45,427 bases of DNA from contig FWCC01000493.1 in NCBI GenBank assembly GCA_900169235.1, positions 1 to 45,427 of the forward strand. The letters are read 5' to 3'. The notes beneath the pieces are model-generated. The model had not been told where the DNA came from. It saw nothing but the letters and a program-made list of their open reading frames with translations, and did no database searches. The translations under genes and the position numbers were made by a program. This document shows, piece after piece, positions 1,209 through 22,130 of this stretch (its first letter is position 1; each line of letters starts with the position of its first letter). The stretch comes from Zarea fungicola. Taxonomy: Eukaryota; Ascomycota; Sordariomycetes; Hypocreales; Cordycipitaceae.

Positions 1209-1639
1209 GAGCTGCTCGCTTGCACCTTGGTTGTATATTGCCTCGTCGAAATGCCCGACGTGGTTCTGCGTGGTTGGTGGGGTAAACCTCAAACGTCAAA
1301 GAAGTGGGCGTATTGCTTGCGCAGTACAGAGAACGCTAAATCGACTGCGCTTAAGCTAAGCCATTTCAAGACAAGCGGTAATGGTCTGCCCAATTAATGG
1401 TCTCCCTTACAAGCCATCGCACAGCCTTGTTCGCCGCATATGAGCAAACTGCAGCAATAGCCAGTCGGTTACACAGCGAAGGCACGCAGTCGACATAAAA
1501 ATTGATTACCGCCCTGGGTGGTCATGTGCAAACCAGAGAGTATATATTCCATGCATGTAGCCCGTCTCTGTCAGTATACTTTGTCTTCTTCTTCCACATC
1601 TTACATGCATGACCAGTGTCTTGCGCCTTCTGAACTATC
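1209..1639. promoter_or_regulatory. divergent promoter, zinc-cluster regulator / hydrolase
   Basis: This 431-bp gap separates two divergent starts (1208 minus, 1640 plus). It holds no protein-like frame and presumably carries both promoters. A TATA-like stretch (tatatattc) lies near 1540 ahead of the plus-strand gene. I saw no copy of the TTGCGGCCG element here. Confidence 0.5.
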
Positions 1640-2632
1640 ATGGCCTGCCCTCAGTGCTTCACTGGCCATATCAATTCTGGCACTCCTACCGGCCACTGGG
1701 ATACGATCTATGGGCTTCGGACCTATGTTGCAAAGCATGCTCCTGGAAACAGTACACGCGGGATCATCGTCATAATACCTGATGCATTTGGGTTTGACTT
1801 CGTCAATAACCAAATATTAGCCGACCATTATGCGTCAGCTGCAGATTTTTTGGTGTATCTTCCTGACTTCATGGATGGTGTGTCTGAAATTATTGCCAAA
1901 CTAATTTTAAAACTTGCTCACCTAATTTTTGCTAGGCAATGCTGCCCCAGTTAGAACCATGATCAACATGGCTCATCTTTGGGATGAGACTGAATCTTGG
2001 TTACTCAAACCGTAAGCCATTTCTCGCGATTACACATACTATCACAAAACTTACGACTGTATCTAAGCTATTACCTCATTGCTACTCTATTGGACTTTTT
2101 GCCATTTCTCTATCGAAATAGATTCACAGTTGCTTGGCCGAGAGTTACTGGATTCCTGAAAGAGCTCCACGCGCATAACGTTGATGCACGTCCCGTGGGA
2201 GTCGCGGGCTTCTGCTGGGGTGGGTTACACGCGATCAGACTCGCCCATGAGACAGGTGAAACTATCACGGCTACTGGTCTTCCGCTGGCTACTGCATTCT
2301 TCACTGCTCATCCAAGCAGTGTAGATGTTGCCCCCGACATTGGAAACGTTGGACGCAGTCTATCCATTGCTATCGGCGATGACGATGCTGTAATGGGAAT
2401 TAAGAAAGTTCGAGAGGCCGAATTGATTCTTGCAAATAAGACTGATATTGACAGCGAAGTTATCATTTATCCTGGAGCCAAGCACGGGTTTTCTATTCGC
2501 GCAAGTAGGGTTAAGGCTGACTCAGTAGAAACGCGACAAGCAGTGGAGGCCGAAGAGCAGGCTATTACGTGGTTTAAGCGACAATTTGATAACTTGCCAA
2601 AGACTAGGCAGGTTATTGGGCAACTAAAGTAA
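1640..2632 (+). CDS. dienelactone hydrolase family protein
   Basis: Alpha/beta-hydrolase of the dienelactone hydrolase family, 274 residues, probably cytosolic. Exons are 1640-1877, 1936-2011 and 2122-2632; introns of 58 and 110 nt have GT-AG ends and phases that agree. The N-terminus has the family's typical CxxC/TGH opening. The nucleophile motif G-F-C-W-G-G is at residues 134-139 with Cys136. The acid (IGDDD) and histidine (AKHGF) elements follow in order, so the Cys-Asp-His triad appears complete. Length is normal for fungal members. It converges on URC1 with only 92 bp between stops and diverges from the truncated regulator, so it sits inside the uracil-utilisation block. A hydrolytic step on a ring-opened pyrimidine intermediate is conceivable, but the substrate cannot be read from sequence. 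Confidence 0.88.
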
Positions 2633-2724
2633 AGACTAGCAATAGCTTAAGTATTATGGTCTGAGCTGGTTACGAAGCATGTGGTCGAGATATTTAGCTG
2701 TTAGAAAGATTTCCAACCTCGCTA

Positions 2725-4296
2725 CTAATGAGATACTAAATCAGATTGACAAGTTTCAACCTTCGCATTCGGAAGCACGTCGCCCCAGGCTTGCCATCCA
2801 CGACCCTTTACTGCCTTTAGCTCCTCTTCTGTGGAGACTTTACTGTTTGTGAAGTATCCAGCATTAACCTTGGCATCAATTTCAACACGGGAGTCTGCGG
2901 GGATCATGTCTATCATCATGCTTTCGTCAGCGTTAAAGAATACCTATCGCGTGTACAATACTTACGGTCAGGAATTGGAACCCGCTCCAGGATAGGGATC
3001 CCTTGCTCAACTATAGCGTCGTGTTTCATATTCGACATGGATAACATGCGATCGATCTTCTTTACTCCAAGCCAGTGCAGGATATCAGGCATAAGGGCCT
3101 GGAATCTCATCTAGAAGGTATCACAAGTTAGCAAAAGCTGAAACAAGAAAAGGCCACTATCTAAATCAAGGAAGACGAGAAGGGCAAGAAGGAAGAAGCC
3201 TTACATCTCTTACACCAGCAATGTTTTCTGTACGAGCAAAGTATTTGTCCGCAGTATCTCCACCACGCTTTCGCGCATTGTAGACAAGATACTTCACCAC
3301 CTCCCCGAGGGCGCGGCCCTCCTTTCGAAAGTAGATGACAACACCAGATCCTCCATTCTGCGCCTCCTTTATGGCTTCCTCAATTCCAAAGGTCAAGTAC
3401 GGCCGGCAAGTGCAAATGTCTGACTGGAAAACATCAGAGCCATTGCATTCATCATGGATACGCAACGCAAGTTTGCAAGTCTCATCCGAAACACGCTCGG
3501 GTGGCCCAAAAATGTAGACTGTGAGACCACCAATTGGTGGTAAGAAAACCTTGATGTCTGGACGAGTTATCAGCTCTGGATAGCTGCCTCCTGTATGCTC
3601 AAACAGTGTCCGGCGCAGCGTCGCCTCGTCAACACCGAACCTTGCTGCCACCCCAGGGAGGTACCACACTGGCTCTACGGCACACTTTGTGACGCGAGTA
3701 TCGCCATCACCATTAATGACAATCTCACCGTCAACAGCAAGACGGCCCGCCTTGATTGAATCGGCAATTTCAGCAACACGCATGTTGGCTCGCGTCACTG
3801 CAATGGACGGCCGCAGATCCAATCCTGCGTCAAGATACTTGCCATAATGCTTGCAAATTTGGTGTCCAAAGGGGTCCATAGCAACGATCTTGGTAGGATC
3901 CGACCAGGTAGGTTGCTGAGGAAAGTCGAATGTGTGCTGTGTATTCTCAAAACTGGGTCGAAAGTCTGCAGGCAAGTCGCCAGAAGCTATTGCAAGTGCG
4001 CTGTAGACGCAGTAGCTGCCTCCATGCGCGCCAAGCGCATTCCGCTTTCGAAGTGTCTCTCCGCTACGCGAGACCAGCACTGGTCCACGTTCCTCGGGAT
4101 TTGTGGCACCCCATCTCAGACTAACAGGGTCGACGACGCTCTGGCCTGGATATGTTGTCAACTATTGTAAGAGTTAGCCAGCTGCCTATTCTTCTTCCAG
4201 CTTGAATACGCATCCGTTAGCACATACAACAATGCTTTCGGCATAGCCCTTGGGACGGGGCGAAAATGTCTTGGGTTGCTCTTTCTCTGTCGTCAT
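2725..4296 (-). CDS. URC1: GTP cyclohydrolase II-like uracil catabolism protein Urc1
   Basis: Member of the fungal URC1 branch of the GTP cyclohydrolase II (RibA) superfamily, 451 residues. Exons (transcript order): 4296-4228, 4161-3205, 3110-2966, 2909-2725; introns of 66, 94 and 56 nt with agreeing phases. The zinc ligands C-x10-C-x-C are at about Cys262, Cys273 and Cys275, and the YFRKEGRALGE segment corresponds to the RibA catalytic region. The long N-terminal half (DPVSLRWG..., ahead of EPVWYLPGVAARFGV) is characteristic of URC1 and absent from riboflavin-pathway RibA. In Lachancea kluyveri URC1 is required for growth on uracil as nitrogen source; by homology the enzyme is thought to act on a ribosylated uracil intermediate. 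The start at 4296 gives a short first exon; an upstream in-frame ATG at 4377 is possible. Neighbouring URC4 lies upstream on the same strand. Confidence 0.93.
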
Positions 4297-4373
4297 TTTT
4301 CTGTAGGTGATGTATCGACTCCTGATTGATATTGATGGCTCGACTTTCAGAGAGTAGGTGGTGTTCAATTGGC

Positions 4374-4906
4374 TCATATTTGAGTACAGTCTCGGCAGTG
4401 CATTTCTTTGCCCCTGCTGATCAAATTCACGAGAAATGCTAGACAGTCCGAGATAACTACTTCAGGTGAATAATCCTGTAACGATAGCCTGCGGGTTCTA
4501 CTTACCCTAGAGATAGCTGATTGCCTTGCCTTTCTGATTAACCGTGGAACTGGCATGTTTTACATGCTGAAGCTGATATCCAGGTAAGATAGAGGCTATC
4601 TTACATTTTCATGATTAAGGTCAGGAAGGTCGCCGCTAGCCTTGAAGCGTTTATCTTTATCCCTTATCTGTAGCGACACGGACAAGCTTGATAGCTGTGC
4701 TGTAAATTCAGGACCTGGTGGGCCAATCTCTCGGACGCTAACGCGAGTTTCCGGCGGTCCCATTCTGGCCGAAGCCACAAGAAGTGCTACATCTGGCTGA
4801 TAACGGATCCTAATTGGGACTACCGCTTTCTCTACGGCAAGACTTAGGACATGGTCGTCAAATTGAGTACAGTGAAATGCCCTGCTACATTCCCCAATAT
4901 TTCATG
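4374..4906 (-). other. unrecognised open stretch with exon-like signals between URC1 and URC4
   Basis: On the minus strand a frame stays open from about 4906 to 4596 (roughly 100 codons with gene-like codon use), reading through ...VVPIRIRYQPDVALLVASA... and ending at a consensus donor (gtaagatag) near 4598. Two shorter exon-like pieces follow at about 4560-4500 and 4470-4374, the second after a ttacag acceptor. I could not join the pieces with matching phases or find a convincing ATG, and I do not recognise the sequence. It may be a decayed gene or one with undetected exons. The rest of the URC1-URC4 gap (4297-5155) shows nothing else I can name. Confidence 0.3.
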
Positions 4907-5155
4907 GTCTTGCGGCTGGCATACCCCGCATGTCAGATGCCACAGCTGTAACACATACACGACACAGTTAACAATTGAATTACCATAATATAACATAAAT
5001 GTGCTACAAATTCGTTCACAATTGTCATACATTGGAAATTTCCATGAGCGTGACCTGTGAAGAACCGTGAACCTTTCATGAGGCAATGGCTGAGATGTAG
5101 AATGAACTATTGATTGTATTCTCAACTCAAAAAAAAATATGGCTTCTCTATACTT

Positions 5156-6660
5156 CTAAAACAAAGTTCCATCACCATCAATAATTATCGGACTCGATAA
5201 TGTGTCCGGGCGTAGCTTTCTAGCCAATTCACGCCCACCCTTCCAGCTTCCAGCTTCCAGCATTTGAGCCATATTCAGTGTCAACCCCTTCTTCGCAAAC
5301 CTGGATGAGACTGAATCGAATAAACTGTTTAAAAGAGCAACTGTCATGGACCTCCATTCGACAACAGCGTCATGAGATGGCGAAAATGTAGGCAGCTTCT
5401 CACCTGCCCTAGTGTGGATTCTGGCAGTTTCTGGTTTCAATTTTAGGACGCCCATATCAATGAATAGACCACCGTTACGATATTCAGGAAGCCCGGTCCC
5501 CAACTCCGTATTGACGGTTTTCAGACCCAGCACAGTGATGAATGGTACGGTGAGGGAGTATCCCAGCCACTGGGTCAGTTTGTGGAATGGTTGGATAGTC
5601 GCTGTTACCGGCACATTGCCCTGATCTTCAGCACCATGGGAGAGAATCATGAGTGGCCATGCATCACCAATGGGTTGTCCATCAATAACTGGGCGGTCTG
5701 AAGGCCACGCTGGCAAAAGGATCTTCTGCAGCGTTGACCATAGTAGTTTATAATCTAGAACATTGTCTTTAGACGACGACAGGAGAAAATCTATTCAACA
5801 AATAATCAGCAGATATACAGGGTATTTTTAAAATTTGATAATAATGGAAAAACCTACCCACAAGGTTTCCTGGCCTGCCAGTTGGCCCAACAATATCTGT
5901 GAGACTCTGTAGCGAGCAGCCGACGCTATTGAGTAGCTTCACACGTGGAGAAACGCCGATCAAAGGATTCTCTTTTGTGATTTGAAAGAAGTCAACTAAC
6001 ATATCGTCTGTGAGGCCAACTAGACCAGCAGCTAGTTAGATTAAACGTTAGCTTGTTACCATGAAACGAGTGTGAAAGAGTGCTCATGATCTTACCATCC
6101 ACAGCTACAGATGGCTCTGCGTTGGTGTTGAATACTCCAGCTTCTGCCATGTACAATGATGCCACAGCGATGCCTTCACTTCGGCCATAGCTGTTGCTGG
6201 TGCCCGGTTCTTTGAATTTCCACGCATCCCCCGCACCAGCATCTAGTAATACCGAGACGAAGAATAGATCAATCAAGCGGCGAGTTGTCTCGACAGCATC
6301 GATTCCTTCTGCTTTCCATTTTTCAATCAATAAAGCGATACGGGGGATGCCTCCAACTTCAAAATGCTGCCAGCGACCGTGAGGGGGAATTTGATCGAAT
6401 CTGTCGGGGCCAAAGTCACGCTTAGGATTCCATCAGTATATCGGTATGCATGGGCACAAGCAATTGGCTATAATAGAGTGCGCAGTACCTACTTCAATGA
6501 TAGCGGACACAAACTCTGCAACTTCTGGCATACGAGACTCATCATAGTCAAAGTGATTGAGATGGCCTAACTTGGCGCTGCGAAGGACTTGACTGGCGCG
6601 TTCGCGAACGGCCTCGAGGGTCAAAAGATGCTCAACTTCTCGGCTTACGATTGATGACAT
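5156..6660 (-). CDS. URC4: DUF1688 uracil catabolism protein Urc4
   Basis: DUF1688 family protein, 433 residues, the partner of URC1 in fungal uracil catabolism. Exons (transcript order): 6660-6493, 6420-6096, 6031-5858, 5790-5156; introns of 72, 64 and 67 nt, all GT-AG with agreeing phases. Splicing restores typical family segments: PPHGRWQHFEVGGIPRI, the SNSYGRSEGIAVASLYMA stretch, NTNAEPSVAVD, KENPLIGVSPRVKLL and WPSDRPVIDG. Length is normal. The biochemical activity of DUF1688 is not established to my knowledge; genetically URC4 is needed for uracil breakdown in L. kluyveri. It is divergent from the UPRT gene at 7434, sharing a 773-bp promoter with three close GATA-type sites, which fits co-induction of the two genes and nitrogen control. 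Confidence 0.93.
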
Positions 6661-7433
6661 GGTTACAGGTAGTTTCGATTCTCGAGAATGAGGAAGTGGC
6701 GATTAATTAGTTTTTCGTTTTGGAAAAGTGGCATGCACCGTCATCTTGTGTCTCCTGACATAGGCGACATGCCAAGCCTGCCGACATGGACGCTTCCTAC
6801 GGCCAGGCTGCCCCGCACTAATCGTTGCATAATAAGCTAAAAAATAAATCACGACCACAATTCAGCGACAGCATCAGACCGCTTATCTTATTATCGGTCC
6901 CACTAAGATAAGAACCCCGCAATCTAACCTGGTTGACTCGACGTCCGCAGGGCAACAGTAACTACTCGTTGACGATTTGAGCGACCCAGAGTGGCAACAT
7001 GTCTTGGTATCTCCTCCAAGCCTGTCAATCAAGGATATTGAGATAGCATTGTATTCTGTTGATAACATGAGAGTGGAGTTATCGTCCTGGCCAATATAAG
7101 TGGATGGTAGAGAACATCAGTGATACTTGCAAGCATTAGAAATATTTACGTAAAATTAAAGTATCTTCCATGTACTACTGACAACTTTGATGGCCATGAT
7201 TGTAATCTTTCTATGCTTGATCTTTGTACTCATACTCGTATCTTAGGGTGCCAGCAAACTACAATCCAAGTTTCGCGTCTAACAATGATAGCATATGAGA
7301 AGTAGCATTTCCCTCGAGTTTATGTGTTTGATGACTGATACATCTCTGTTGTTTGAAAAGTGGTCATACATGCGCCTTTAATACCATCTCTCTGGCCAGT
7401 TCGTTCATTCTCGTTTAAGCGTCGCATTTTACA
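6661..7433. promoter_or_regulatory. bidirectional URC4/UPRT promoter with GATA sites
   Basis: A 773-bp intergenic region separates divergent URC4 and UPRT starts. Three GATA-type core sites fall within 30 bp: TTATC at 6883-6887, TTATC at 6891-6895 and GATAAG at 6907-6912. Such clustering is what AreA/NIT2-type nitrogen regulators bind in ascomycetes. A TAGTGCGG box lies on the minus strand at 6813-6820, with GGCCG nearby, resembling part of the composite element seen ahead of the dehydrogenase and permease genes. I see no coding frame. Confidence 0.55.
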
Positions 7434-8110
7434 ATGTTCCCAAATACTTCCGTCACAAGCGACCCGGCATTTGCTACTGGTCTTGCTCGGCTGCGCAACC
7501 AGTCCCTACGTCCCGCATGCGTTCGTGCCACTGTTGCCCAACTTACAGCCATATTGGCAAAAGATGCCGTCACATCACCGGCAGCGGATAACGAGACCAT
7601 TGCCATAGTTGTGATACTTCGTTCTGGGATGGCCATGATGGAGTCGTTCATATCGGCCTTTCCAGAAAACACAAAAATGGTCATTTACCACCTCGGCCTT
7701 TTTCGTGAGAGCAAGACCCTACAGCCTGTGGAGTACTATAACAAGCTTCCCCGAAAGGATGACACCGTTAAGAAGGCGTATGTCCTGGATCCCTTGATCG
7801 CCACTGGAGGTACTGCTGCAGCCGCAATTGGTATACTAAAGTAGGCAATCTCATCTAATACTGAAATCACCTATGTAATTCTTGTATTATCTATGCTAAC
7901 ACTTTTACTTGATTTAGGGACTGGGGTATCGACCAGATTGTATTTGTGTCCCTCGTGGCGAGCCAGATTGGCCTTGAAAACGCAGCAAGTTGTTGGCCAG
8001 AAGGGACAAAATTGGTCATTGGTGCGCAGGATGCCGAGCTGGATGATAAGGGATATGTCAAGCCAGGACTTGGGGACATCGGTGACCGCCTCTATGGAAC
8101 AGTTCTATAG
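7434..8110 (+). CDS. divergent uracil phosphoribosyltransferase (URC6-like candidate)
   Basis: Uracil phosphoribosyltransferase family, 199 residues, converting uracil plus PRPP to UMP. Exons 7434-7840 and 7918-8110; the 77-nt intron has a gctaac branch site and agreeing phase. The PRPP loop reads VLDPLIATGGTA (family: DPMLATGGSA) and the C-terminal uracil-binding segment reads GYVKPGLGDIGDRLYGT. Ile replaces the usual Ala/Phe in GD[AF]GDR, and the N-terminal third is atypical, so this is a divergent paralogue. The ATG at 7434 lies just ahead of the first family-like segment. It is divergent from URC4 and convergent with a second, more canonical UPRT. In the URC pathway uracil is ribosylated first (URC6 is a UPRT), so this could be the cluster-specific entry enzyme. 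Altered base specificity is a possibility but not shown. Confidence 0.88.
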
Positions 8111-8751
8111 TAAATGTTTACGAGATGTTGAGGTTGAAGTTCCAGTACAAATGCCAGATTTAAAATGCTTTATGTGTTTGGATGTAGAAGGATAACATGA
8201 GGACCCAACAACTATCTTCTCGCGTCAAGTACCATTTGTTCCGTCGTAAAAAAATGCAGGAAACTCTGTTTGAAGTAAAAGTGCTTAGAAGGAAAGGGGA
8301 TCATCGGCCATGTTGGATCATTTTTAGTGTTGTGTGAAGTTGATGTCCTTGTCTGTATACCAGGCTATTTAGCACGAAAACCGTTGTAAGTCGAATTGTT
8401 AGCAGTGCTGGTCTTTATAATTTGCAACATTACATGTGGTGACGGTATCTAAAGGATGCTTTCAATAAGCAAGCAGACCTGTCGTGGAAAGAATTTCCAT
8501 CAAGTGTAAGGTGGAATGAGTGCCAAATAACGTACGTGATCTACCAAGCTGCTAAATACACTCCTCGCTGCTCAGCAGTAACAGTGATTGACGCTTACAT
8601 GCACCTCAATATAGCCTGGCATAGGCTTGGGTATACCAGTGTTTATATGATTCGAATGGAAGATTTATGGAGATGACTTGTAGAAATGAAGCTTTAATGT
8701 CTGCTCAGCTCCACGCAGCTCTGTAATCTTGAACTGTTTTTATTCACAGCT
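8111..8751. other. convergent intergenic region between two UPRT genes
   Basis: A 641-bp spacer between the stop codons of the two UPRT genes. I see no coding frame with family features, no RNA gene and no repeat; it presumably holds the two 3' UTRs. Confidence 0.5.
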
Positions 8752-9646
8752 CTATTCTACAGTGCCATAAAAACGGTCGCCAAAGTCGCCAAGGCCAGGT
8801 GCTATATGTCTAGAAGGCTTGTTAGCATCAATTTAGTCATATACAGAATGTGGGAGACCTTACTTGGAATGAGTCAGCCCCTCGTCAACCGCAGCCGTGA
8901 CCAAGTTCAGTTCGGGAAAGCGTTTCATGATAGTGTCAAGACCGAATTGGGACGCCACCAAATTGACAAATATGATGTTTCCTTCCACAACTCCTCTTTC
9001 CTTCAAAACTTCTATAGCTTTTGATGCTGAGCCACCTGTCGCTAACATGGGTTCAAGTAGAAGGACAGCTATCATAATTAACATCTGGAAATGGGCCTCT
9101 GTATTTCTCACTTACTCTTCTCCTTAATATTGTAAGGAAGCTTTGAGTATAAATGAGTTGGAGTGTACGTCTCTTCATTGCGCTGGATCAAGATTTTGCC
9201 CATGCTCAAATGAGAACTAGTTTGATAAGTTATCCCTCTCTTCCTTAAATACACAGACTTCGGAGCAACTCACCCACAGTATCTTCGTAAAGCACTCTCA
9301 AAGCTTGCACCCGCTCGTAGGATGCTAACACCACAGATCGGTTTAACTTGTTTGTGTCCGGCGTATGTCAATCCGGTAGGAGTCTCAACATTGAAAGGTT
9401 CTGTGTGGATGAGATTTAGAGCTGGAGACATCATCCGTTAATTATCGTCATAATCTTCTTTAGCAAAGGAGAAGTCGTACCAGCCATTATGAGACGGGCC
9501 GAGACGGCCTCAAAAGCGCGGTGAAAGTCCACAGGATTGGTTTCATGGTTTCGCAGTGTTGTCATACAGCTGAGAAGATAGTTTCCTTGCTCCAACATTG
9601 TGACACGGTTGCCGTAAATTGCCTCGTTAAGAATGAGGTTTCTCAT
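8752..9646 (-). CDS. uracil phosphoribosyltransferase, FUR1 type
   Basis: Canonical fungal UPRT, 221 residues, close to the usual length of Fur1. Exons (transcript order): 9646-9481, 9421-9274, 9204-9116, 9068-8864, 8809-8752; introns of 59, 69, 47 and 54 nt with agreeing phases. Diagnostic segments appear in order: TMLEQGNYLLSCMTTLRNHET, VKPICGVSILRAGASFE, GKILIQRNEETYTPTHLYSKLP, the PRPP loop LLLEPMLATGGSA, NLVASQFGLD, and the C-terminal HIAPGLGDFGDRFYGT. The start at 9646 is the first ATG ahead of the conserved region; a GTG at 9685 and a possible upstream exon cannot be excluded. It diverges from the PRPP synthetase gene, which makes its co-substrate. Having two UPRTs side by side suggests separate salvage and catabolic roles, which is an inference. 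Confidence 0.92.
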
Positions 9647-10369
9647 CTTGCAGTACTTTAAGGGGTTTGTCAAATCTGTAGTCACCTGTGTAAAGTAGAT
9701 CTTTTCTCAAAATATGTAAATGAGAGTGACTGGTTCGCTTCATCTATGCATATGGTCTGTTGCGATTTTTGACATCATAGAGTACAGTTTGGATGAAAGT
9801 TCGTTAATCAATCTTTAATTCGTATACAATTAGAATGGTTTCCGATAAGAATTATTCACGATTGCTGTTCCACTATCGAAGCGATTATTTGATTTTGTGG
9901 TTCAGAGACTGATATGGAAAGATAAGACGTGAAGATTGGCTCTTGAGACATATTTTAGGCACGCCACTATATCTACATTCGTACCTAATCCAAGACGTAG
10001 TTGGTATCTTAGATAAGACGATGAGCCAGAGGGCGGACTAGAGAAGTGGATATCCTGGCAATTGCGCCACGAGAAACTTAGCGACCATGGTACTCGATTA
10101 CGGTTGTCCCGAGTTGACTATGGTTGAAATGGTAGCATATTCGCAGTATCGATCCTGATGATTAGAAAAAATAGGAAATTAGAGTGTATTCTCATGAGAT
10201 TTATAATTGGTTGAACATAACTTTAGTGAAGAAACCACTCATGAGCTGACGTGAGTGAGGATTTAAATGCACCTACATATATTTGTCCCTAACTCATATT
10301 CAATTTCTGAAAAATAATTCATGTTAAACAACTCTGCTAAGATCTTTTACAGCTTTTGGACCTTTTAAC
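9647..10369. promoter_or_regulatory. divergent UPRT/PRPP synthetase promoter with GATA sites
   Basis: A 723-bp gap between divergent starts. GATAAG occurs at 9921-9926 and at 10012-10017. The second forms a near-palindrome with the preceding TATCT (10005-10009), a paired-GATA arrangement typical of nitrogen-regulated fungal promoters. No coding frame seen. The gap may include an unrecognised upstream exon of the UPRT gene. Confidence 0.5.
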
Positions 10370-11654
10370 ATGGGGGACGCACTTCGCCTACTGTCTGGTA
10401 CGGATCATCATCAAACTTGTGTTCCTCATCGGCTTACAACTAGTGCAGGTAGTAGCTACCAAGAGCTCGCCCGATTGATTAATGAAAAATTGTGCTTGAT
10501 CCTGCCTTTTCATTTGATTCTCTGCTAACGTTTAATGTACATTGAATGGCAGAATCAGCTCTTCACTCAACTCAGAGACACTTAATATTTCACGATTTTC
10601 TAATGGCGAAACATTTGTCTCAATCGAGGCCTCAGTCCGCAACTCCGACGTATTCATCATACAAACTGCGTCCAACCCTGTTAATGACATGCTGATGGAG
10701 CTCCTAATTGCAATCAGTGCTTGTAAAATAGCTTCTGCTAAAAGGATTACAGCTGTTATACCCTGCTATCCATACGCACGACAGGACAAAAAGGACCGCT
10801 CAAGGGCGCCAATTACTGCTAAACTGGTTGCAAACATGTTGGAAGTTGCCGGTTGTGACCACGTTATTGTGAGTGTTAAGCAACATATGATGTTTGTGGG
10901 CAGAGTGGCGCAGCATTGACTTTTGTTAATAGACAATGGACCTTCATGCATCCCAAATTCAAGGCTTCTTTAATATACCGGTTGACAAGTTAGTTTACTT
11001 CCCAGCTATTTTTACTAGTACTTTCCCTCAGAAGTGACTGACAACATCCTAATCAAGCGTAAGCGCTCTGAAGACCGAGCTTATAGTGACTTTGAGCTGA
11101 CAATATGCAAGCTGTTTGCAGAAAAGACTATAATTGAGTATATCCAGAGGGAATACAACTGTGAGGACATAGTAATTGTATCTCCTGATGCAGGAGGTGT
11201 AAAGAGGTATGGAATTTAATAGGATCGCCAGCTTTATCCGGTATTGACATGTCCCAGGGCGGCAACAATAGCGGATCGCCTGAATGTCGACCTTGCTATC
11301 ATACACAAGGAACGAAAAGTCGCAAACAAAGTTAGCCGCATGATTCTGGTTGGAAATGTACAGGATAAAACGGCGGTGATTATCGATGATATTGCAGATA
11401 CATGTGGAACACTTGCACTAGCAGCCAACATTGTCAAGGAACACGGCGCTGCAAAAAGCGCGGCCATTGTTGTGCATGGCTTCATGAGCGGGCCGTCGGT
11501 TGAAGTCATTGAGAACAGCAATCTTGAGAGATTGGTTATTGCAAATACGCTCCCTTTATCAAACGGCGCTGCATCGTGCTCTAAAATCCACCGAATGGAT
11601 GTAAGTGCAGTATTCGCAGAAGCCATCCGACGGACGCATCATGGAGAGTCGTGA
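10370..11654 (+). CDS. ribose-phosphate pyrophosphokinase (PRPP synthetase)
   Basis: PRPP synthetase, 319 residues, the normal length; it transfers pyrophosphate from ATP to ribose 5-phosphate to make PRPP. Six exons: 10370-10397, 10449-10491, 10553-10868, 10933-10988, 11087-11206, 11258-11654. Splicing gives the N-terminal [14 protein letters not shown] strand-helix, [12 protein letters not shown], the ATP-site segment [45 protein letters not shown], and the ribose-5-phosphate/PRPP loop [14 protein letters not shown]. The intron at 10989-11086 is the least certain: it is the only GT-AG choice I found that keeps phase, and it leaves a short unusual segment (DFELTICK) before [11 protein letters not shown]. 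The gene lies between two UPRTs and the dehydrogenases. A PRPP synthetase inside a catabolic cluster would feed UPRT directly; it is probably a paralogue of housekeeping PRS genes. Confidence 0.9.
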
Positions 11655-12901: not shown

Positions 12902-14555
12902 ATGGCTCCACCCAACTCGACAGCTCGTTCCTCTACGATCATCGCTCTCACCACCACGACTACATCATACCCCCAGACGCACGAGAAAATTAGCTACCCG
13001 GCCGATGCACCTTATTTTGTTAACAATGAGTTCCATCTCTCCTCAGCTACTGAGTTCTTCGAGGTACACGATCCAGCAACCAACAACCTAGTTACAAGGG
13101 TTCCTTTAATGACCTCGGTTGAGCTGCAAGAGGTCATAAACTCTGCTCAAAAGGCATTTCCATTATGGAGAGCCAAATCAGTTATTGCCAGACAGCGGAT
13201 TGCTTTCAAGTTTGTGGAACTGATCAAGAGAAACTCAGATCGCCTTGCTGCAGCTATAACGCTAGAGAACGGGAAAACTCAAGCAGATTCCCGTGGTGAT
13301 GTGCTTCGCGGGCTGCAGGTGGCAGAGGCAGCTTGTTCCGGTCCTGAATATATGAAGGGAGAAGTGCTGGAGGTTGCCACTAACATGGAGACGCGCACAT
13401 ACAGAGAGCCACTAGGCGTCGTAGCCGCTATTTGCCCATTTAGTGCGTTCTTCTCTCTCTGGACGAACAGCCGAGTTGCGTGACTGACCATACAAATCAA
13501 TAGATTTCCCTGCCATGATTCCGCTATGGTGTTTGCCACTTGCCGTCATCACAGGAAACACTATTATCCTCAAACCCTCCGAGCGGACGCCAGGCGCGGC
13601 CATGATTCTTGCCCAATTGGCAAAAGAGGCAGGGTTCCCCGACGGCGTCATCAGTATTGTGCACGGAACACACGACACGGTGAATTTTCTTCTGGATGTC
13701 CCGGAAGTCAAGGCAATCAGTTTTGTTGGTTCCAACAGAGTGGGTGAATATATATTTTCCAGAGCCTCTGCAAATGGTAAGAGAGTGCAGGCAAATCTGG
13801 GAGCAAAGAATCATGCTGTTGTTCTACCCGACAGCGATAAAGAGCTGTTTATCACATCGGTAATAGGTGCGGCCTTTGGCGCTGCTGGCCAACGTTGCAT
13901 GGCCATCAGTGTTCTCATCATGGTTGGGCAGTCACTGCAGTGGATTCCTGAACTAGTAGAACGGTCAAAGGCAGTTCGAGTCAATGCTGGATTCGAAGCC
14001 GACGCCGATCTCGGGCCGGTTATATCACCACAGAGTCGGGAACGCATCATCGACTTGATAGACAGCGCAGAGAATGAAGGAGCAGAAATTCTTCTGGATG
14101 GTCGAGGCCATATCCCCAAGGGTTATCCAAACGGAAATTGGATTGGACCTACAATTATCGGTCAAGTAAACGCGTCCATGACCTGTTATAGGGAGGAGAT
14201 ATTTGGCCCAGTCTTGGTTGTTCTCGGCGTGGACTCTCTAGATGAAGCAATCGAACTTGTCAATAACAACTACTACGGAAATGGCACGGCCATTTTTACA
14301 GAGTCTGGAGTGATGGCAGAGAAGTATCGCAGGAATGTCGAGGCTGGTCAAGTAGGCATTAATGTGCCCATTCCAGTACCTCTTCCAATGTTCTCCTTTA
14401 CAGGAAACAAGAAGAGCATAGCAGGTGGAGGGGCCAGCACATTTTATGGCCAGCCAGGTATCAGCTTTTACACGCAGTTGAAGACTGTTACATCGAAATG
14501 GCCAGATGTGGGCGGTGGATCAAGGATAAACATGTCGATGCCTTTACAGTCCTAG
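12902..14555 (+). CDS. methylmalonate-semialdehyde dehydrogenase-like (CoA-acylating) enzyme 1
   Basis: Aldehyde dehydrogenase of the MMSDH (CoA-acylating) branch, 530 residues. Exons 12902-13442 and 13504-14555 with a 61-nt intron; splicing restores ICPFNFPAMIPLW. Family features: VTRVPLMTSVELQEVINSAQ near the N-terminus, NTIILKPSERTPGA cofactor segment, ISFVGSNRVGEYI, the catalytic-Cys segment [20 protein letters not shown], and the MMSDH-specific C-terminus INVPIPVPLPMFSFTG. Such enzymes oxidise malonate or methylmalonate semialdehyde to acetyl- or propionyl-CoA with NAD+ and CoA. The N-terminus is Ser/Thr-rich and could be a mitochondrial presequence. URC uracil breakdown releases 3-hydroxypropionate in yeast, so an enzyme for its semialdehyde fits the cluster. 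The ATG at 12902 is preferred to a GTG 60 bases earlier. Confidence 0.9.
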
Positions 14556-15550
14556 AGGTGAGGGCAATTATACATGAAGGCCGATGGGATCAGGGGAAAC
14601 TTTAATATCACCGTGTCACAAAATATTTACACTGGATAGTTCTCATTACTCGCTAAGTCCGTCAAATATTGATTCCCATGACCCTAGGTGAAGAAGTAAG
14701 CAAAGGCTGCACATAATAGACGACATCCCGAAGCCGCTTCTCTGCCAATACAAACTGGTAGTGATTAGGACCACTTGTATCTTATCATTGGTTCTTAGTG
14801 ATGACTTTTTGGATCTTTTTTTCTAGTTTTGGAGTGTGTGAAAAAGGTAGCCAGCCATGAAGTGGCAGAAGTAAGCTTTTCTTGGGTTATGACGTCAACA
14901 ATAGCTCCGCTTAGTAGTCAAACTGTACGCGGTAATTAAAAGAAGTTTGGCCCACGTAATTGAAGAACTATAGTGACAGAAAATACGCGCCCAAAAAAGC
15001 TGTTATTAGTTTACTGGCCCATGGATGAGCGGCACTCGGGACATTGCGACAAAACGCGGGTTTGGCTACCGTAGCCCTTGCGGCCGTAAGTCCGCTAGTG
15101 CGCCGATAAGAATTCAGAAGGCGTCTGCACCATGTCAAACATGTTCGAGCTTGATAACATGCTTCTACATCTCGCAGCCTAATTTAATCCACATCTTCCC
15201 CGCTCCGAGTTTTCTGGTCGCGGACACCTTGTTATCTTAATCACCTTCACACGAGAGCAGCATTGCTTAGCTTGAGTTCAATCATCCAAGCGCGGTCTTG
15301 CACAGCATCAAGTACTAAGTGAATAAAAAAAAAGTAAGAGGAAAAAATAGAGTGGCAGAGCAAAACCCGCCATCAACGTACCATTCATTGCCTTCAAACC
15401 TGCCCAGGCTAGCTCTCTCAATGGATACTACACCACATGCCACCAGTGGCATAGAAATAGGTACCACTCAATGTGGAATGGTAGATTGAAGCGAGTGCTA
15501 AAATAAGCTCTTACAGACTCACCACAAAATCGAAACCATACAGTAAGAAA
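14556..15550. promoter_or_regulatory. upstream region of dehydrogenase 2 with composite element
   Basis: A 995-bp gap between the tandem dehydrogenases. TTGCGGCCG occurs at 15078-15086, CCGCTAGTGCG at 15092-15102 and GATAAG at 15105-15110, all within 33 bp. I saw no family-like coding frame, but an undetected first exon of dehydrogenase 2 may lie in the last 150 bp: an ATG at 15420 precedes a plausible donor, though I could not join it in frame. Confidence 0.5.
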
Positions 15551-17509
15551 GTGTCATGTCTTCTTGTGTGTGCAACTGCTTACAGGAGACAGCTCCAAAG
15601 GGTACCTGCGCGCATTGCCAGAAAATCTAACGACAGTCTGACTTCCACCTACGGAATAAACTATAATTTTATTGGTAATACCTTTGTACTCTCCAAGTCT
15701 CGCACGTGGAAAAAAGTCCATGATCCTGTAAGTCAAGATCTGTGCCCTTCCCTTTCTTATCAGCTTCGCGTGAACCTTGTAATCCTTACTTTTCAATGAG
15801 TGGATACTCTATACTCTATCGTGTGACCTGGAATAACCCTTTCTCGTGTTTCCGAAGTCTTCACAGAAATTCATTACACGCGTGCCAGAATCGACAGCTG
15901 AGGAAATCTCAGATGCTGTTGCCGCTGCAGTAGCTGCTCAGCCAGCTTGGGCGGCGATATCAGCCAATCAGCGAAAAAGAGTTCTCATTGACGTCATTGG
16001 AATTCTTCGTCAAAACGCCTGTAGAATTGTAAGTCTCAATTCTTCCCTGGGTAGTAAGAATCCATGGAGTTTGACTAACATGCATATTATCTTTACAGCG
16101 ATATATCCTAAGCCATGAAGTGGGCAAAACACTTGCTGATGCAGACGCCGAGTTTGAGCGGGGCATAGACGCCCTTGAAATAGCTTGCTCAGAGAGTGAA
16201 ATGAGCGGAGACCATATTGTAAATCAGTCGGCTGAAATACATACGATTCATGAACCACTTGTTTGTTAAATGCAGCCATTGTCAGAGGTGAAGGCCCTAA
16301 CATTCTTCATAGGGTGTCTGCTTAACAATCAGTCCTTTCAATTTTCCCTTCTTGGTCCCTTTGTGGTCAATTCCCTATGCCATTTTGGCGGGGAATACCG
16401 TCATCCTGAAGCCATCTGAACAAACACCATCTGTCTCACAAGTAATAGCAGAATGCTTCCTCCAGGCAGGTTGCGCGCCCGGCATCTTAAACATACTCCA
16501 CGGCGGTGCGGGTGTCGTCACAAGTCTGTTGTCAAAGCCTGCGATACGGGCAGTCAGCTTTGTTGGCTCCAATGTGGCTGGAGAGAAGGTGTATGAACAT
16601 GCCAGGGCAACGCGAAAGAGAGTACAAATCGAGTGCAATGGGAAGAACCACGGCGTGGTTCTAGAGGATGCTGCGAGAAAGAAGGCACTCTACGCCATCG
16701 CAGGAAGCGCATTTGGAGCAGCCGGCCAGAGATGTATGGCGGTGAGTGTCGTCGTTTTCGTGGGCTCAACCCGAGAGTGGATAGAGGACCTAGTCGAAGT
16801 TACCAAAACACTTGTGGTTGGCTGCGGAAGTAATAGCTCCGTCGATATTGGACCAGTCATCACTGTGGCATCCAAGAGACGAATTGAAGAAGTCATCACC
16901 AATGCAGAGAGTGAGGGTGCTACGGTGCTCCTTGATGGGCGTAACTATACCGTTGACGACTACCCCGAGGGAAATTTCGTTGGCCCAACTATTCTTACTG
17001 GCGTTCAACCGTACATGTCATGTTACCAGGATGAGATTTTTGGACCAGTATTATGCTGTGTTGAAGTGGAAACTTTCGAAGAAGCTGTTGACTTGATCAA
17101 TGACAATAGATGTATGTACACCACTTCTGATCTTCATCTTACTATTGTCACCTTTCATCATCACTAATCATACCAGATGGAAACGGATGTACTCTCTTCA
17201 CGAGTAGTCCCCGAAACGCCCGAATATTTGAGCATTCTGTAAATGTGGGGCAGATAGGCATCAATGTCCCAGTAATAGGTATGGCCGTGTCATCATTTCG
17301 GACAGACGCTTGAGGCTCACTCAAATAGCGCCATCGAGCCCTCTACAGCGCACGGCAAACAAAGATTCCTTTTTAGGAGGTTAATTTCTTCTGGTCTTTT
17401 GTGTAAAGGAACGACCAAACTGACTTTTTCTATAGACCTGAGTGCACAGGGAAGAGGTTCAGGGCAGTTCTTTAGGATGACGAAAACTATAACATCCATG
17501 TGGCCATAA
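15551..17509 (+). CDS. methylmalonate-semialdehyde dehydrogenase-like enzyme 2, 5' end unresolved
   Basis: Second CoA-acylating aldehyde dehydrogenase, about 500 residues. Exons: (start unresolved) ~15551-15727, 15867-16028, 16099-16260, 16313-17111, 17177-17278, 17409-17509. The spliced protein has [83 protein letters not shown], catalytic [20 protein letters not shown] and a C-terminal [11 protein letters not shown]. No in-frame ATG precedes NFIGN; the only upstream start is a GTG at 15551. The segment before it ([14 protein letters not shown]) is presequence-like. At the 3' end, codons at 17329-17379 still resemble the family (SFLGG), but including them needs a 29-nt intron. Skipping them uses one 130-nt intron. 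The gene may therefore be starting to decay. It is clearly diverged from copy 1, so it is not a recent tandem duplicate. Confidence 0.75.
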
Positions 17510-20290
17510 AGACACAGCCTGTATTGTTTAATCTTTTGTCATAGTGCTTCAAATATATTAAGCTTCAAGGGCATTCAAGAATGCAAATCACTGATGCAGG
17601 AACAGAAGCTTAACGAATATTGACCAATATTTGGTTCAGAGTCGTGTTGGTACGATCACAAGAATGGTACGATGCACGGGCTGAGAGGTGGCTTTCTCAG
17701 CAGGTATATTAATCTTAACTCGATTATACTCAGAGTCTAGCTACTTGTGGGGGAAAATTCCTATTCTATATGCAGGAAAAAGCAAACAAAAGCAAACAGG
17801 AAATCTATCTACAGCCACTATAACGCTCCGCAGGGTTGGACATCTTACGAATGGTCGATCGAATCGACCAATTTATTTGATACTAAGGTTTATAATTATT
17901 ATATTAAATAAGTTAACTAGTTGTATTATTTTTCTTGATTCTTTTAATTAACTTAAATATTCTAATTTATTTAATTTTCTTAATTTTCTTCATGAGTTTA
18001 ATGTACTTAATTAGTTTAATTTACCAAATCCAGATGCTCTCCTTGAGTTAATTAATTTAATTTAATATGGGCTTCATTCGCATGATTCGCAAGATGTCTT
18101 AACGCTGACGATCTGACTTTTCTCGTATCCGGGGCGGGGGCCGTCGGTCATGGCGTTGACCGAAGAAAGCCTACATCATGCATCAGGCTTTCATGGATAA
18201 GTTGCTTAACAAACAAGTCAACAATCACAACCCATATCGGCTAATAAGACACTGTTCAATTTGAAAGATAGTCCTTCAGTGGCATACAGATAAGCAATGG
18301 CTAACACATAAGCGATGAGTACGTGGCATACAATTGAAGTCATAAATATCATGTGAGTCATACTAATTGAGTGGTTAATCAAAATGCTTTAATACTTCTG
18401 CTTATCCGGGATCAACAAAGCTGACTGTATTGTAGCGTAGCCAGCGACCCTAATGTTGACAAACTGGCCGGATGTTGTGCTTCTTGTTATCGGATCGACC
18501 TACAGGTTGCTCAGTTCCAATCATTACTAGTTATATCATATCTAGCTGGCTATTGGATCAGCTTCATGGCTCTGATTTATCAACACTTCCATGTCACCGC
18601 GTTTGGTCTCTATCGCTACTAACTTCAAGCAACATGTTAAAAAAGACTAGTTCCAGGTTTGAGTCTTCCTAGAATCCAACCCTTTCGGCTTAAACTCGGG
18701 GGTCACATGTGGTAATAGGAAGCTGACCGGATGGGTCAAGCAAAGATTATAGATTGTAATAGTATAGTGAATTGATTGCCTCTCAATATGCGCCAACTAG
18801 GTTTCTCGTAACTAGAGACGTTATTGCTGTCTCCGTGAATGATCTCCGTAACCGTTTCCCAGCTATACCCGCGTATTCGTCGAATCCTTTTGTTTCTCTA
18901 CTCTTCCTGGCACCGCGCCATCTGGATAGTGCCCTGGCCAGCACTTTTTGAACGGAACTTTGATGTCGCTGTTCTCAACGCTATGGTTTTGACTATTACC
19001 TTGTTCAGACTCGCACGCTCTATTTTCTGTAAGAAGTGGAACTGGCAAATCCAGAATTGCAGTTGACTTTTTGCTCGCTGAGTCTGTTCAAGCATCTCGT
19101 GAATTTCATACAAACAGTAGCACGATTGCGGCCGCTAAGCAGGGCTATTAAACTGCGATCCAATCCAAAGCCATTACCATCGCACTCTTCCCGGCAGCAT
19201 TTTCGGATTGTATCTGCGTTCCTTCCCCCTGGATTCTGCCAGACATTTGTCGATGTGGACATCACAAATGTGGTGTGGCTGGACTCTTGCGGGCAAGTGC
19301 TCGAGCCAAGTATGCTGCCGGCTACCCTTGCTGATGCGAAAGCTGTAAATCAGATATCTGAGGGCCCGCCTCTGGTTTATCAGGTTTCATACAGAACTAT
19401 CGCACAACTAAATTTGGCAGATCTAAAATGTCATAATAATTACTTCTATATTTGCACATTATCGTTTGGAGCTTGCGGCCGCTAGTGCGGAGATAATAGA
19501 GCCCACCGAAGATTGCGGCCGAGTTCTCTGGTGTAAGCCACAGTGTTGGGAAATGACAAGATAGCGTTTATACATATCAGACAGTATCAGCAGATAAATA
19601 TTTTTGATTTTCTAGATCTAGGTAGTCGCATCTGGCTATGCCTGGCTGGGTTTAGGTTCGGTTTGCTGTAGATACTTTTTGACTGTGGGACTGTGTAGGC
19701 GGCGTTCACAATAACACGTCTTCTTCCCAGACATCAGTTGAGAGCGGAAAGCTAAGGTTTGTGGTTTGCCAAGTCAAATGCAGATGAGAAACTCTAGGGA
19801 ACAGATTGGCTGCGGCTCCCTCCGTCAGCTGATAACTAACGCATCTATAACTATGGGCACATGAGGCCTATCTCTTGGTGGCTTATCGCTTCTCTTACAA
19901 TTTAACTAAGGTAGTGAAACTTCTAGTGGCCCAGCGCAAGAGGCGCAGTGACACCAAGCTACTGGCGCAATGGACCAACTCCTTTGCTTGCCAAGATGCG
20001 GTGTAGAATATTGGTTCTTGTTTCCTCCGTTTTCTCAATCTCACCAGCCACGATTGCTCGTGAGCCCCGTATTTTAACTCCGTAAAAGCGAGAGTGCAGA
20101 CGATGTACGCGTTATCTTGCCCCACCCCCAGATTTCTACCCCAACCTGTCTCCAACCTGTAAAGAGATAACAAATACTATAGACATCAGCCAGCGCAGGA
20201 GATGTTCAATATGCCTGCTAGCTGTCAGTCTGCCCTTCATTTCCCCAGCTCTCCCGCGCGTTTTTTTTTTTTGATATCTTGTTTACAACA
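17510..20290. other. gene-poor 2.8-kb stretch ahead of the permease, with AT-rich island
   Basis: No gene recognised. An extremely AT-rich island rich in TTAA/AATT occupies about 17866-18067. A 150-codon frame at 19036-19485 (+) lacks an ATG and matches nothing I know; it may be a relic. TTGCGGCCG occurs at 19126-19134, 19473-19481 and 19513-19521. The middle copy overlaps CCGCTAGTGCG (19479-19489) and is followed by GATAA (19492-19496). These are likely regulatory sites for the permease. A long T run precedes its start. Confidence 0.5.
19473..19521. promoter_or_regulatory. composite CGG/GATA element upstream of NCS1 permease
   Basis: Within 49 bp: TTGCGGCCG (19473-19481), overlapping CCGCTAGTGCG (19479-19489), then GATAA (19492-19496) and a second TTGCGGCCG (19513-19521). 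CGGCCG is an inverted CGG pair with no spacer, a possible zinc-cluster site. The same order is seen at 15078-15110 ahead of dehydrogenase 2 and, without a close GATA, at 12314-12340 ahead of dehydrogenase 1. Function is inferred from recurrence only. Confidence 0.5.
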
Positions 20291-22130
20291 ATGTTGGGGT
20301 TTAGAAATGCCATTGTCGAGTTTCGACAAGCCTTTCAGAGCATGAAAGCACTCCGCACCAAGATACGTACGGACTTGAATCCGGGCGATAATAATCCAGA
20401 ACATGATCCTAAATGGACCAATATAGACCTTCTGCCGTCACCTTCTGAGCATCGCAACTGGGGATGGTTTAATTACAGCACCTTTTTTTTTGGCTTAAGC
20501 CTTGCCAACTGGCCGTTGGGGAGCTCCATGATTGGCATCGGCCTTAATTGGTGGCAGTCCATCGTTGTAATCTTCGTCAGTCAAATGATATCGTCTGTGG
20601 CTACATGGTATAACTCGAAAGCTGCCACAGTATACCATCTTGGATACCCAGCTATCGCTCGATCGGTTTTTGGAATGCGCGGAAGCTTCCTTGTTGTAGG
20701 TGCCAGGGCGGTACTGGCCATTATCTGGTACGGAATTCAGCTGTATCAAGGCTCATCATTCGTTTTCAATATCTTACACGCTATATTTGGAAAATCCTTT
20801 ACCAATATTCCAAACGGAATACCTGTCAGTCAAGGGTTTACTACTCAGCAGATGATTGCACTCATCATCTTCTGGGCGATACACACACCCTTCATCTTCT
20901 TGCGTCCCCATCAGCTCCGGCATTTTTTTACAGCTAAAGCTGCCATTACGCTAATATCTGCCATTGGATTATTTACCTTTTGCATGGTAAACACAAAAGC
21001 CAACTTAGGGTCTCTGTCCCTTGGCGGAGAGAAAGAGAAGACTGCAAGGTCTGCCCTGGCCTGGTTGTTTATATGGTGCATTAATAGTGGCATGGGCAAC
21101 ACGGCGACCCTGATCACTAACCAGCCTGACTTGGCACGATGGGCTAGGAACCAACGATCCCCAATGTTTGGTGTACTTGTAAGTAGGGTGCAAAGACTGC
21201 TTCGTATCAAAAACTAACTGACATGGGCATCAAGGTCGCATACCCACTCGTTGCGGTCTTGACAGCAAGTATTGGCATCATGAGCACGGCCACTATTAAT
21301 AATTCCTGGGGATTAGAGATTTGGAATCCCTGGGATCTAATGACTGAGATCCTTAATCGATATTGGCGACCAGACGTGCGTTTTGCCGTTATTATATGCG
21401 CTGTTGGCTGGGCCATCGGCGCCCTCGCCACAAATATTGGCTGTAATATGATCCCGTTTGGGGCTGATGCATCGCTTCTCTATCCAAGATACCTCAATAT
21501 CATTCGTGGACAGTTTATTGTTCATTTCGTTGGACTTGCCATCTGTCCTTGGAAGATTATGTCTTCTGCATCAGGCTTCCTTACTTTTCTTTCTGGATAT
21601 GCGATCTTCATGGGGCCGGTAGTGGCACTGATGATCAGTGAATATTTTATTATTTCAAAAGAAAATATTTTTATTCCAGCACTATATCAAGGTAGTATCG
21701 AAAACCAGCACTACTGGTTTCACCGTGGGTGGAATATTCACGCTTACGTGGCCTACCTGGCAGGCGTTGTTCTTGTTCTCCCTGGTAAGCCCAACTGTTT
21801 CTTTTTTTATAGCGCTACATCCACTTCTTGATGCATGCACGCTGGTGTCCTGTAGCTAACTTGGCATGAACAGGATTTGCTGGCTCTCTTGGTGCTAATG
21901 TATCAACCGCGGCGCTCGACCTGGGCAAGCTTGGTTGGTGTCTGTCATTTGTGGCTACATTCATAGTGTACTGTGGCATTAACCTTGTTTGGCCGCACGG
22001 CAATGTTCAATTCACCAAAGGTCTACAGAGAAAAGAGCTGGCTGTGGACCAGAGTGGATTTATAATCACCACGTCTAGTGACGAGTTCGACAAGGGCGAC
22101 AAACGTGTAGGACAGAATTCGAAATCTTGA
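20291..22130 (+). CDS. NCS1 permease, uracil/allantoin (Fur) type
   Basis: Nucleobase-cation-symport-1 family transporter of the fungal Fur type, 564 residues, plasma membrane. Exons 20291-21178, 21235-21784 and 21874-22130; introns of 56 and 89 nt with agreeing phases. The entry motif IDLLPSPSEHRNWGWFNY precedes TM1 (FFFGLSLANWPLGSSMI), and about 12 hydrophobic segments follow. Conserved segments include YHLGYPAIARSVFGMRGSF, WYGIQLYQG, ITNQPDLARWAR, INNSWGLEIWNPWDL and NMIPFGADASLLYPRYLNIIRGQ. The cytosolic tail is short and charged. It could import uracil, uridine or allantoin; residues deciding this need alignment with FurA/FurD/Fur4. It lies at the inner edge of the uracil block, and its upstream region carries the composite element also found ahead of the dehydrogenases. 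The ATG at 20291 follows a poly-T tract directly. Confidence 0.9.

What the first reader, a model, noticed from the sequence alone, without database searches (positions are those of the whole stretch)
1209..22130. Expanded subtelomeric uracil-catabolism (URC) cluster with its own PRPP synthesis, C3-semialdehyde oxidation and uptake
URC1 and URC4 (DUF1688) with UPRT genes mark the URC route of uracil breakdown. Here they are continuous with a dienelactone-hydrolase-family protein, a second UPRT, a full-length PRPP synthetase, two CoA-acylating semialdehyde dehydrogenases and an NCS1 permease. Each addition has a logical place: uptake, PRPP supply, ribosylation, ring opening (Urc1/Urc4, perhaps the hydrolase), then oxidation of malonate semialdehyde to acetyl-CoA. 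If confirmed, this would be a nearly self-contained catabolic supercluster that explains the fate of the 3-hydroxypropionate carbon. Gene identities are from motifs; the pathway order is inference.
Basis: partly seen in the sequence, partly recalled or inferred. Interest (0 to 1): 0.9.

Follow-up and report, generated by a model that had tools for sequence, protein, structure and literature searches.

The report
Uracil-breakdown cluster that recycles its ribose
Beside a chromosome end this fungus carries a compact set of uracil-breakdown genes together with a gene predicted to rebuild the ribose-phosphate carrier and one that would likely oxidise the leftover three-carbon piece to acetyl-CoA, and in a number of other fungi one or both of these extra genes are listed on the same contig as the uracil-breakdown gene URC4.

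The parts
21..1208 (-). Zn2Cys6 transcription factor, truncated by telomere repeats; candidate cluster regulator
   Evidence: PF00172 and PF11951 3-192/384; CCCTAA units at 16, 27 and 33; the three best-matching own relatives sit in open frames of 627, 637 and 687 aa
1640..2632 (+). dienelactone-hydrolase-family protein, 292 aa, 3 exons; GFCWGG, a DDD stretch and PGAKH are visible where the family's Cys-Asp-His triad is expected (triad recalled)
   Evidence: model, PF01738; three best own paralogues (C265, C102, C391) 35-52% per match
2725..4296 (-). URC1, GTP-cyclohydrolase-II-like, 451 aa, 4 exons, HDECNGSDVFQSDICTC motif
   Evidence: match over residues 14-428 to PDB 7eev, E 5e-146, titled UTP cyclohydrolase
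5156..6660 (-). URC4 / DUF1688, 433 aa, 4 exons; K-x31-E-Y-R present
   Evidence: fold of a 67%-identical relative; motif
7434..8110 (+). UPRT-A, 199 aa, 2 exons
   Evidence: PF14681; 48% to own C191 copy
8752..9646 (-). UPRT-B, FUR1-like, 225 aa, 5 exons
   Evidence: PF14681; 38-43% to own C425 UPRT
10370..11654 (+). PRPP synthetase, 319 aa, 6 exons
   Evidence: tree; same-contig relatives
12902..14555 (+). MMSDH-A, CoA-acylating semialdehyde dehydrogenase, 530 aa, no presequence-like leader
   Evidence: TIGR01722; leader comparison; tree
15664..17509 (+). MMSDH-B, diverged paralogue, 7 exons modelled, start codon unresolved
20291..22130 (+). NCS1-type permease, 564 aa, 3 exons, substrate unknown

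Best explanation
This is an accessory, subtelomeric URC-type cluster, predicted to break down uracil, in which a clustered PRPP synthetase would likely recharge the ribose-5-phosphate carrier and a leaderless CoA-acylating dehydrogenase would likely oxidise malonate semialdehyde to acetyl-CoA. Inferred order: (1) the NCS1-type permease takes up uracil or uridine (weakest step). (2) UPRT joins uracil to PRPP, giving UMP, which kinases raise to UTP. (3) Urc1, homologous to a solved UTP cyclohydrolase, opens the ring; water then releases malonate semialdehyde and leaves a ribosylurea phosphate (the monophosphate, if Urc1 releases pyrophosphate as GTP cyclohydrolase II does; recalled). (4) Urc4 uses a Qng1-like fold, with a conserved Lys and a Glu in place of Qng1's Asp, to hydrolyse the N-ribosyl bond, giving urea and ribose-5-phosphate. 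(5) PRS turns ribose-5-phosphate and ATP into PRPP and closes the cycle. (6) MMSDH-A oxidises malonate semialdehyde in the cytosol to acetyl-CoA and CO2. (7) Urease encoded elsewhere frees ammonia. Shown here: gene identities, open frames, recurrent co-location of URC4 with PRS and with MMSDH, the predicted Urc4 fold and the aligned residues. Inferred: substrates, order, compartment, regulation and the DLH role.
Against: No expression data. A second URC set exists, so this copy may be dispensable. The regulator is truncated and MMSDH-B much diverged, so part of the cluster may be decaying. 15 of the 27 PRS and 15 of the 22 leaderless MMSDH relatives were not seen on a URC4 contig; for PRS, P. 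odoratum, A. californicus and a second F. erecta copy, and for MMSDH, Thozetella, T. reesei, T. barbatum and P. angulare, lie on a contig other than the species' listed URC4. Same contig is weak evidence for megabase contigs. 'Leaderless' rests on predicted start codons and a cut at position 62; 17 of the other 98 have the motif at 62-70, and 4 short forms fall in the clade of the housekeeping copy. No PRS, permease or DLH match (tblastn E 1e-8) in any of the 80 bacterial loci; three of the four tight bacterial cases are from one group, so independent origins are few. Of 4 DUF1688 proteins scanned at E 1, only P0107 passed the PF10343 cut-off, one was below it and two had no match; a DUF1688 profile found nothing among PDB sequences; hhalign probability is only 15% although E is 0.0017. 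Qng1's aspartate is a glutamate in Urc4. If Urc1 works on UTP and keeps the triphosphate, ribose-5-phosphate is not the direct product and PRS would not fit simply. L. kluyveri ends at 3-hydroxypropionate, so oxidation is not universal. A missing presequence does not prove a cytosolic enzyme.
Confidence: 0.66

Rival explanations
1. A plain URC cluster (URC1, URC4, UPRT); PRS, the two MMSDHs, DLH and the permease are unrelated genes gathered by subtelomeric shuffling.
For: Subtelomeres are often mosaic (recalled); the genes scanned beyond 22.1 kb are unrelated by Pfam; the permease is separated by 2.8 kb; recurrence of DLH and the permease in other fungi was not tested.
Against: PRS (12 of 27 against 0 of the other 93) and leaderless MMSDH (7 of 22 against 0 of 98) recur on URC4 contigs across several ascomycete groups, some with neighbouring locus tags, and MMSDH precedes URC1 in some bacteria.
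Confidence: 0.12
2. A pyrimidine salvage and scavenging cluster: the permease, two UPRTs and PRS build UMP, and Urc1/Urc4 only control its level; MMSDH serves beta-alanine or valine breakdown.
For: UPRT and PRS are salvage enzymes; fungal MMSDH also serves valine (both recalled).
Against: Urc1 and Urc4 are reported as catabolic in L. kluyveri (PMC7530994); an MMSDH with a presequence-like leader is elsewhere in the genome (C453); URC4, not a salvage gene, was the anchor of the co-location count.
Confidence: 0.1
3. A silent, decaying subtelomeric duplicate: the working URC pathway is the one on C425 and C301, and this copy is eroding from the telomere side.
For: Regulator cut by telomere repeats; MMSDH-B on a very long branch and with a substituted C-terminal motif; second URC set present.
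Against: URC1, URC4, both UPRTs, PRS, MMSDH-A and the permease all have open frames with GT-AG introns; Urc1 Cys motif and Urc4 Lys/Glu motif intact; the composite RIP index is negative in all 45 one-kb bins.
Confidence: 0.12

Closest known systems
Schizosaccharomyces pombe urg1-urg2-urg3 cluster
   Same: Clustered GTP-cyclohydrolase-II-family, FUR1-like UPRT and DUF1688 genes (PMC2174524, passages)
   Different: The passages describe three core genes, uracil-induced; they do not mention PRS, MMSDH, DLH or a permease gene in the cluster; induction not tested here
Lachancea kluyveri URC pathway (URC1-6, URC8)
   Same: Urc1, Urc4 and UPRT homologues; ribosylurea to urea assigned to URC4 (PMC7530994, section 8)
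   Different: There the C3 unit ends as 3-hydroxypropionate; here CoA-acylating dehydrogenases and a PRPP synthetase lie in the cluster
Bacterial URC1-URC4-UPRT loci (80 fetched here)
   Same: Same core trio; in 4 loci MMSDH lies immediately upstream of URC1 (ORFs read in L060 and L102, match position in L065 and L110)
   Different: No PRS, permease or DLH match in any of the 80; L060 has a uridine kinase gene beside it
UTP cyclohydrolase (PDB 7eev, 7ej3)
   Same: Urc1 matches over residues 14-428, E 5e-146; titles seen
   Different: The paper (Zhang 2021) was seen only as a reference, so its reaction products are not cited here
Qng1 / DUF2419 queuosine salvage enzyme (PDB 7ugk, 7u07, 7u91, 7ulc); N-glycosylase activity recalled
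   Different: 15-18% identity in the structural alignments, Glu for Asp, longer protein, different expected leaving group (urea)

Membership tests
URC uracil-catabolism cluster | Urc1 (GTP cyclohydrolase II-like) gene | tested here: met
   PF12471/PF00925; 7eev match
URC uracil-catabolism cluster | Urc4 (DUF1688) gene | tested here: met
   PF07958 526.3 bits over 2-420/420
URC uracil-catabolism cluster | UPRT gene linked to URC1/URC4 | tested here: met
   two PF14681 genes within 3 kb of URC4
URC uracil-catabolism cluster | Zn2Cys6 regulator (URC2, recalled) | tested here: inconclusive
   a Zn2Cys6 gene is adjacent but truncated by telomere repeats; orthology to URC2 not tested
URC uracil-catabolism cluster | urea amidolyase (URC3,5) | not tested
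   not searched; a urease gene was found on C424 instead
URC uracil-catabolism cluster | malonate semialdehyde reductase (URC8, recalled) | not tested
   not searched in the genome; the SDR at 26608-27636 lies outside the cluster
URC uracil-catabolism cluster | induction by uracil and growth on uracil | not testable with these tools
   no expression data
CoA-acylating MMSDH (TIGR01722) | score above curated cut-off 448.5 | tested here: met
   658.0 (MMSDH-A) and 503.9 (MMSDH-B)
PRPP synthetase (TIGR01251) | score above curated cut-off 113 | tested here: met
   334.9 bits
NCS1 family (TIGR00800) | score above curated cut-off 353.1 | tested here: not met
   286.8 bits, although PF02133 (305.3 bits against 23.5) is met; called NCS1-type only
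Qng1 / Q_salvage (PF10343) | fold of Qng1 | tested here: met
Qng1 / Q_salvage (PF10343) | PF10343 match above cut-off | tested here: not met
   window Urc4 matched only PF07958 at E 0.001; of 4 relatives scanned, P0107 passes (26.3 against 25), P0112 is below (15.9), P0001 and P0096 have no match. Not filed as a member
Qng1 / Q_salvage (PF10343) | Lys199 and Asp231 (the residues changed in PDB entries K199C and D231N) | tested here: inconclusive
   Lys aligned and conserved; the Asp position is Glu

The most novel reading that the evidence does not exclude
Urc4/DUF1688, still named 'unknown function' in Pfam, is a ribosylurea-5'-phosphate N-glycosidase built on the Qng1 fold; with the clustered PRPP synthetase it makes uracil breakdown a closed cycle in which ribose-5-phosphate is a reusable carrier, and a leaderless MMSDH turns the C3 fragment directly into cytosolic acetyl-CoA instead of 3-hydroxypropionate.
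Probability: 0.45. Interest if true: 0.78.

Novelty: new variant of a known kind. Interest (0 to 1): 0.6.

Why it matters
The URC pathway has been known genetically since 2008 (recalled; the paper is in the reference list shown), but the chemistry of Urc4 and the fates of the ribose and the C3 fragment are thinly described in the papers I could read. The cluster and its recurrence make three direct predictions: Urc4 is a glycosidase with named active-site residues, ribose-5-phosphate returns to PRPP, and malonate semialdehyde goes to acetyl-CoA in fungi that carry the leaderless MMSDH. It also shows one filamentous fungus holding two deeply separate URC gene sets.

Tried and rejected

Limits of the co-location count: it uses the species name plus contig length printed by the protein search. 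One search compared 120 URC4, the first 27 PRS and 120 MMSDH hits; one search added the other 93 PRS hits and found none on a URC4 contig (4 of the 93 had no contig length). The 27 were taken because identity falls after them; two further Pezizomycotina PRS (Fusarium mexicanum, Bionectria ochroleuca) are among the 93. Of the 27, one is from a mosquito assembly and one has no name. 'Leaderless' means the DPATNN-type motif before position 62: 22 of 120; 2 of the other 98 lack the motif. With the cut moved to 70 the split would be 7 of 39 against 0 of 81. No fungal genome other than the window's own could be opened, so exact gene order rests on locus tags. The chance figures assume a 40-Mb genome and three paralogues and are not used. 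The statement that a DUF1688-Qng1 link was not found in print rests on two searches of the held library: 'DUF1688' (4 papers listed; passages of one read) and 'Urc4' with 'queuosine' (0 papers); subscription papers are mostly not held. Recalled, not seen: Andersen 2008, the URC8 paper of 2014, Qng1's glycosylase activity, the DLH triad, and GTP cyclohydrolase II releasing pyrophosphate.
Full report
What is there. The window is a whole 45,427-base contig (C330) of a 43.1-Mb genome in 456 contigs, and it begins with telomere-like CCCTAA units. I made models for ten genes. From the telomere inward: a Zn2Cys6 factor (21-1208, minus), a DLH-family protein (1640-2632, plus), URC1 (2725-4296, minus), URC4 (5156-6660, minus), a short UPRT (7434-8110, plus), a FUR1-like UPRT (8752-9646, minus), a PRPP synthetase (10370-11654, plus), MMSDH-A (12902-14555, plus), MMSDH-B (about 15664-17509, plus, start unresolved) and an NCS1-type permease (20291-22130, plus). 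Seven of the nine frames scanned beyond 22.1 kb have Pfam matches: alginate lyase, SDR, aspartyl protease, serpin, a second Zn2Cys6 factor, amino acid permease and Apc15p, so the cluster plausibly ends at the permease.

The regulator. The Zn2Cys6 factor matches only the first half of Fungal_trans_2 (3-192 of 384), and its last residues are read from telomere repeats. Its three best-matching relatives in the same genome sit in open frames of 627, 637 and 687 aa against 396 here. It looks cut by the chromosome end.

An accessory copy. DUF1688 occurs twice in the genome: here and on C301, about 41% identical, the latter among genes with no visible link to uracil (read by eye). A second URC1 lies on C425 with a UPRT about 2 kb away. 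Window URC4 is closer to proteins of other fungi (67% to Xylariales sp. PMI_506, 65% to Talaromyces proteolyticus) than to its own genome's C301 copy. So two old URC lineages coexist.

Do the extra genes belong? No other fungal genome could be opened, but the protein search prints species, contig length and often locus tags. Among the 120 best URC4 relatives and the 27 best PRS relatives, 12 of 27 PRS proteins lie on a URC4 contig; of the other 93 PRS hits listed, none does. Five of the 12 contigs are shorter than 420 kb (63.5, 87.6, 200, 296 and 415 kb). Locus tags put URC4 and PRS three genes apart in Fonsecaea erecta (07372/07375), Cladophialophora immunda (03582/03579) and Fonsecaea multimorphosa (04139/04142), and in Stylonectria norvegica PRS, MMSDH and URC4 carry tags g4961, g4963 and g4965. 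In Cosmosporella the URC4 and MMSDH tags are two steps apart (115660/115640). Against this, Penicillium odoratum, Aspergillus californicus and a second F. erecta PRS lie on another contig than the species' listed URC4; for the other 12 of 27 no URC4 of the same source is in the list, which is cut at 120. For MMSDH, 7 of 22 leaderless relatives share a contig with URC4 and 0 of 98 others do (Fisher p 2.9e-6); Thozetella, Trichoderma reesei, T. barbatum and Penicillium angulare have a leaderless MMSDH on another contig than their listed URC4. Aspergillus cavernicola has PRS, MMSDH and URC4 on one 200-kb contig.

Trees. Window PRS falls in a clade of 29 rows (support 100/99) that holds all 12 same-contig proteins and excludes 9 rows, eight from other fungal groups and one from a mosquito assembly; the own housekeeping PRS copies were not put in that tree. 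Window MMSDH-A falls outside the clade that holds the own C453 copy (97/99, 19 rows, of which 4 are short forms), and none of the eight tagged same-contig proteins is in that clade. MMSDH-A itself groups with one unnamed metagenome protein, not with a particular same-contig protein. MMSDH-B sits on a branch so long that its place is unknown.

Leader. The own C453 MMSDH has about 50 more residues before the conserved DPATNN motif (position 106 against 56 in MMSDH-A, counted from zero), rich in Arg and Ser as mitochondrial presequences are (recalled). In the same-contig relatives the motif starts at 43-54. This suggests a cytosolic enzyme; no localisation predictor was run.

Bacteria. One scan gave 80 bacterial DUF1688 loci (its list stops at 80). 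With window proteins as queries URC1 matches in 79, UPRT in 80 and MMSDH in 6 of 80. In L060 and L102 the MMSDH gene ends 24 and 37 bp before URC1, and URC1 and URC4 overlap by 4 bp; L065 and L110 resemble L060 by match position. L105 has an MMSDH 1.6 kb away, and L076 a weak match (31%). The L060, L102 and L105 proteins pass TIGR01722. L060, L065 and L110 are from one bacterial group and the L102 proteins are close to them, so this is few independent events, but it links MMSDH to URC outside fungi. No PRS, permease or DLH match occurred in any of the 80 at E 1e-8.

Urc1. The window protein matches PDB 7eev/7ej3 over residues 14-428 (E 5e-146); the entries are titled UTP cyclohydrolase. The paper was seen only in a reference list. 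The Cys motif HDECNGSDVFQSDICTC is intact.

Mechanism. If Urc4 acts on the 5'-phosphate, as the Qng1 structures with queuosine-5'-monophosphate suggest by analogy, it frees ribose-5-phosphate, the substrate of PRPP synthetase. That gives PRS a reason to be in the cluster: it closes a carrier cycle. The net reaction would be uracil to urea, malonate semialdehyde and spent ATP. MMSDH would take the semialdehyde to acetyl-CoA and CO2; in Aspergillus the homologue ald6 is reported to degrade 3-hydroxypropionate through this intermediate (PMC10061894, passages). Urea nitrogen could be freed by the urease found on C424. The weak point is Urc1: if it uses UTP and keeps all phosphates, the product is not ribose-5-phosphate.

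What is known. S. pombe urg1, urg2 and urg3 are clustered and uracil-induced (PMC2174524, passages). The L. kluyveri pathway yields 3-hydroxypropionate (PMC7530994). The core is therefore already known; the PRS and leaderless-MMSDH additions with their recurrence, and the Urc4-Qng1 relation, are what I add. I call it a new variant of a known kind.

Noticed in passing
window 21-1208: A Zn2Cys6 transcription-factor gene is cut off by the telomere: half of Fungal_trans_2 is missing and the last codons are telomere repeats.
   Followed up: partly
window 30987-32297: A serpin gene (PF00079, 205.9 bits), which I recall as uncommon in fungi, in the same subtelomere.
   Followed up: no
window 22989-23750: Alginate-lyase-family gene (PF08787, 161.9 bits) next to the cluster's permease.
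   Followed up: no
window 19033-19482: Open frame of 150 codons without any Pfam match between MMSDH-B and the permease; two of the window's three GCGGCCGC sites lie here.
   Followed up: partly
G000 C425:14478-19151 and C301:147999-149537: Second, dispersed URC set (URC1 with UPRT; URC4) in the same genome, about 41% identical for URC4.
   Followed up: partly
P0067: A 645-aa Fusarium nematophilum gene model carries SDR and DUF1688 domains together; it may be a fused prediction of neighbours, hinting that other fungi pair URC4 with a reductase.
   Followed up: no
L060 6474-7169: Uridine kinase gene beside the bacterial MMSDH-URC1-URC4-UPRT run.
   Followed up: no
window 15664-17509: MMSDH-B has open frames but is very diverged (branch 8.95), with the PMFSFTG-like motif replaced; a changed substrate or decay is possible.
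   Followed up: partly
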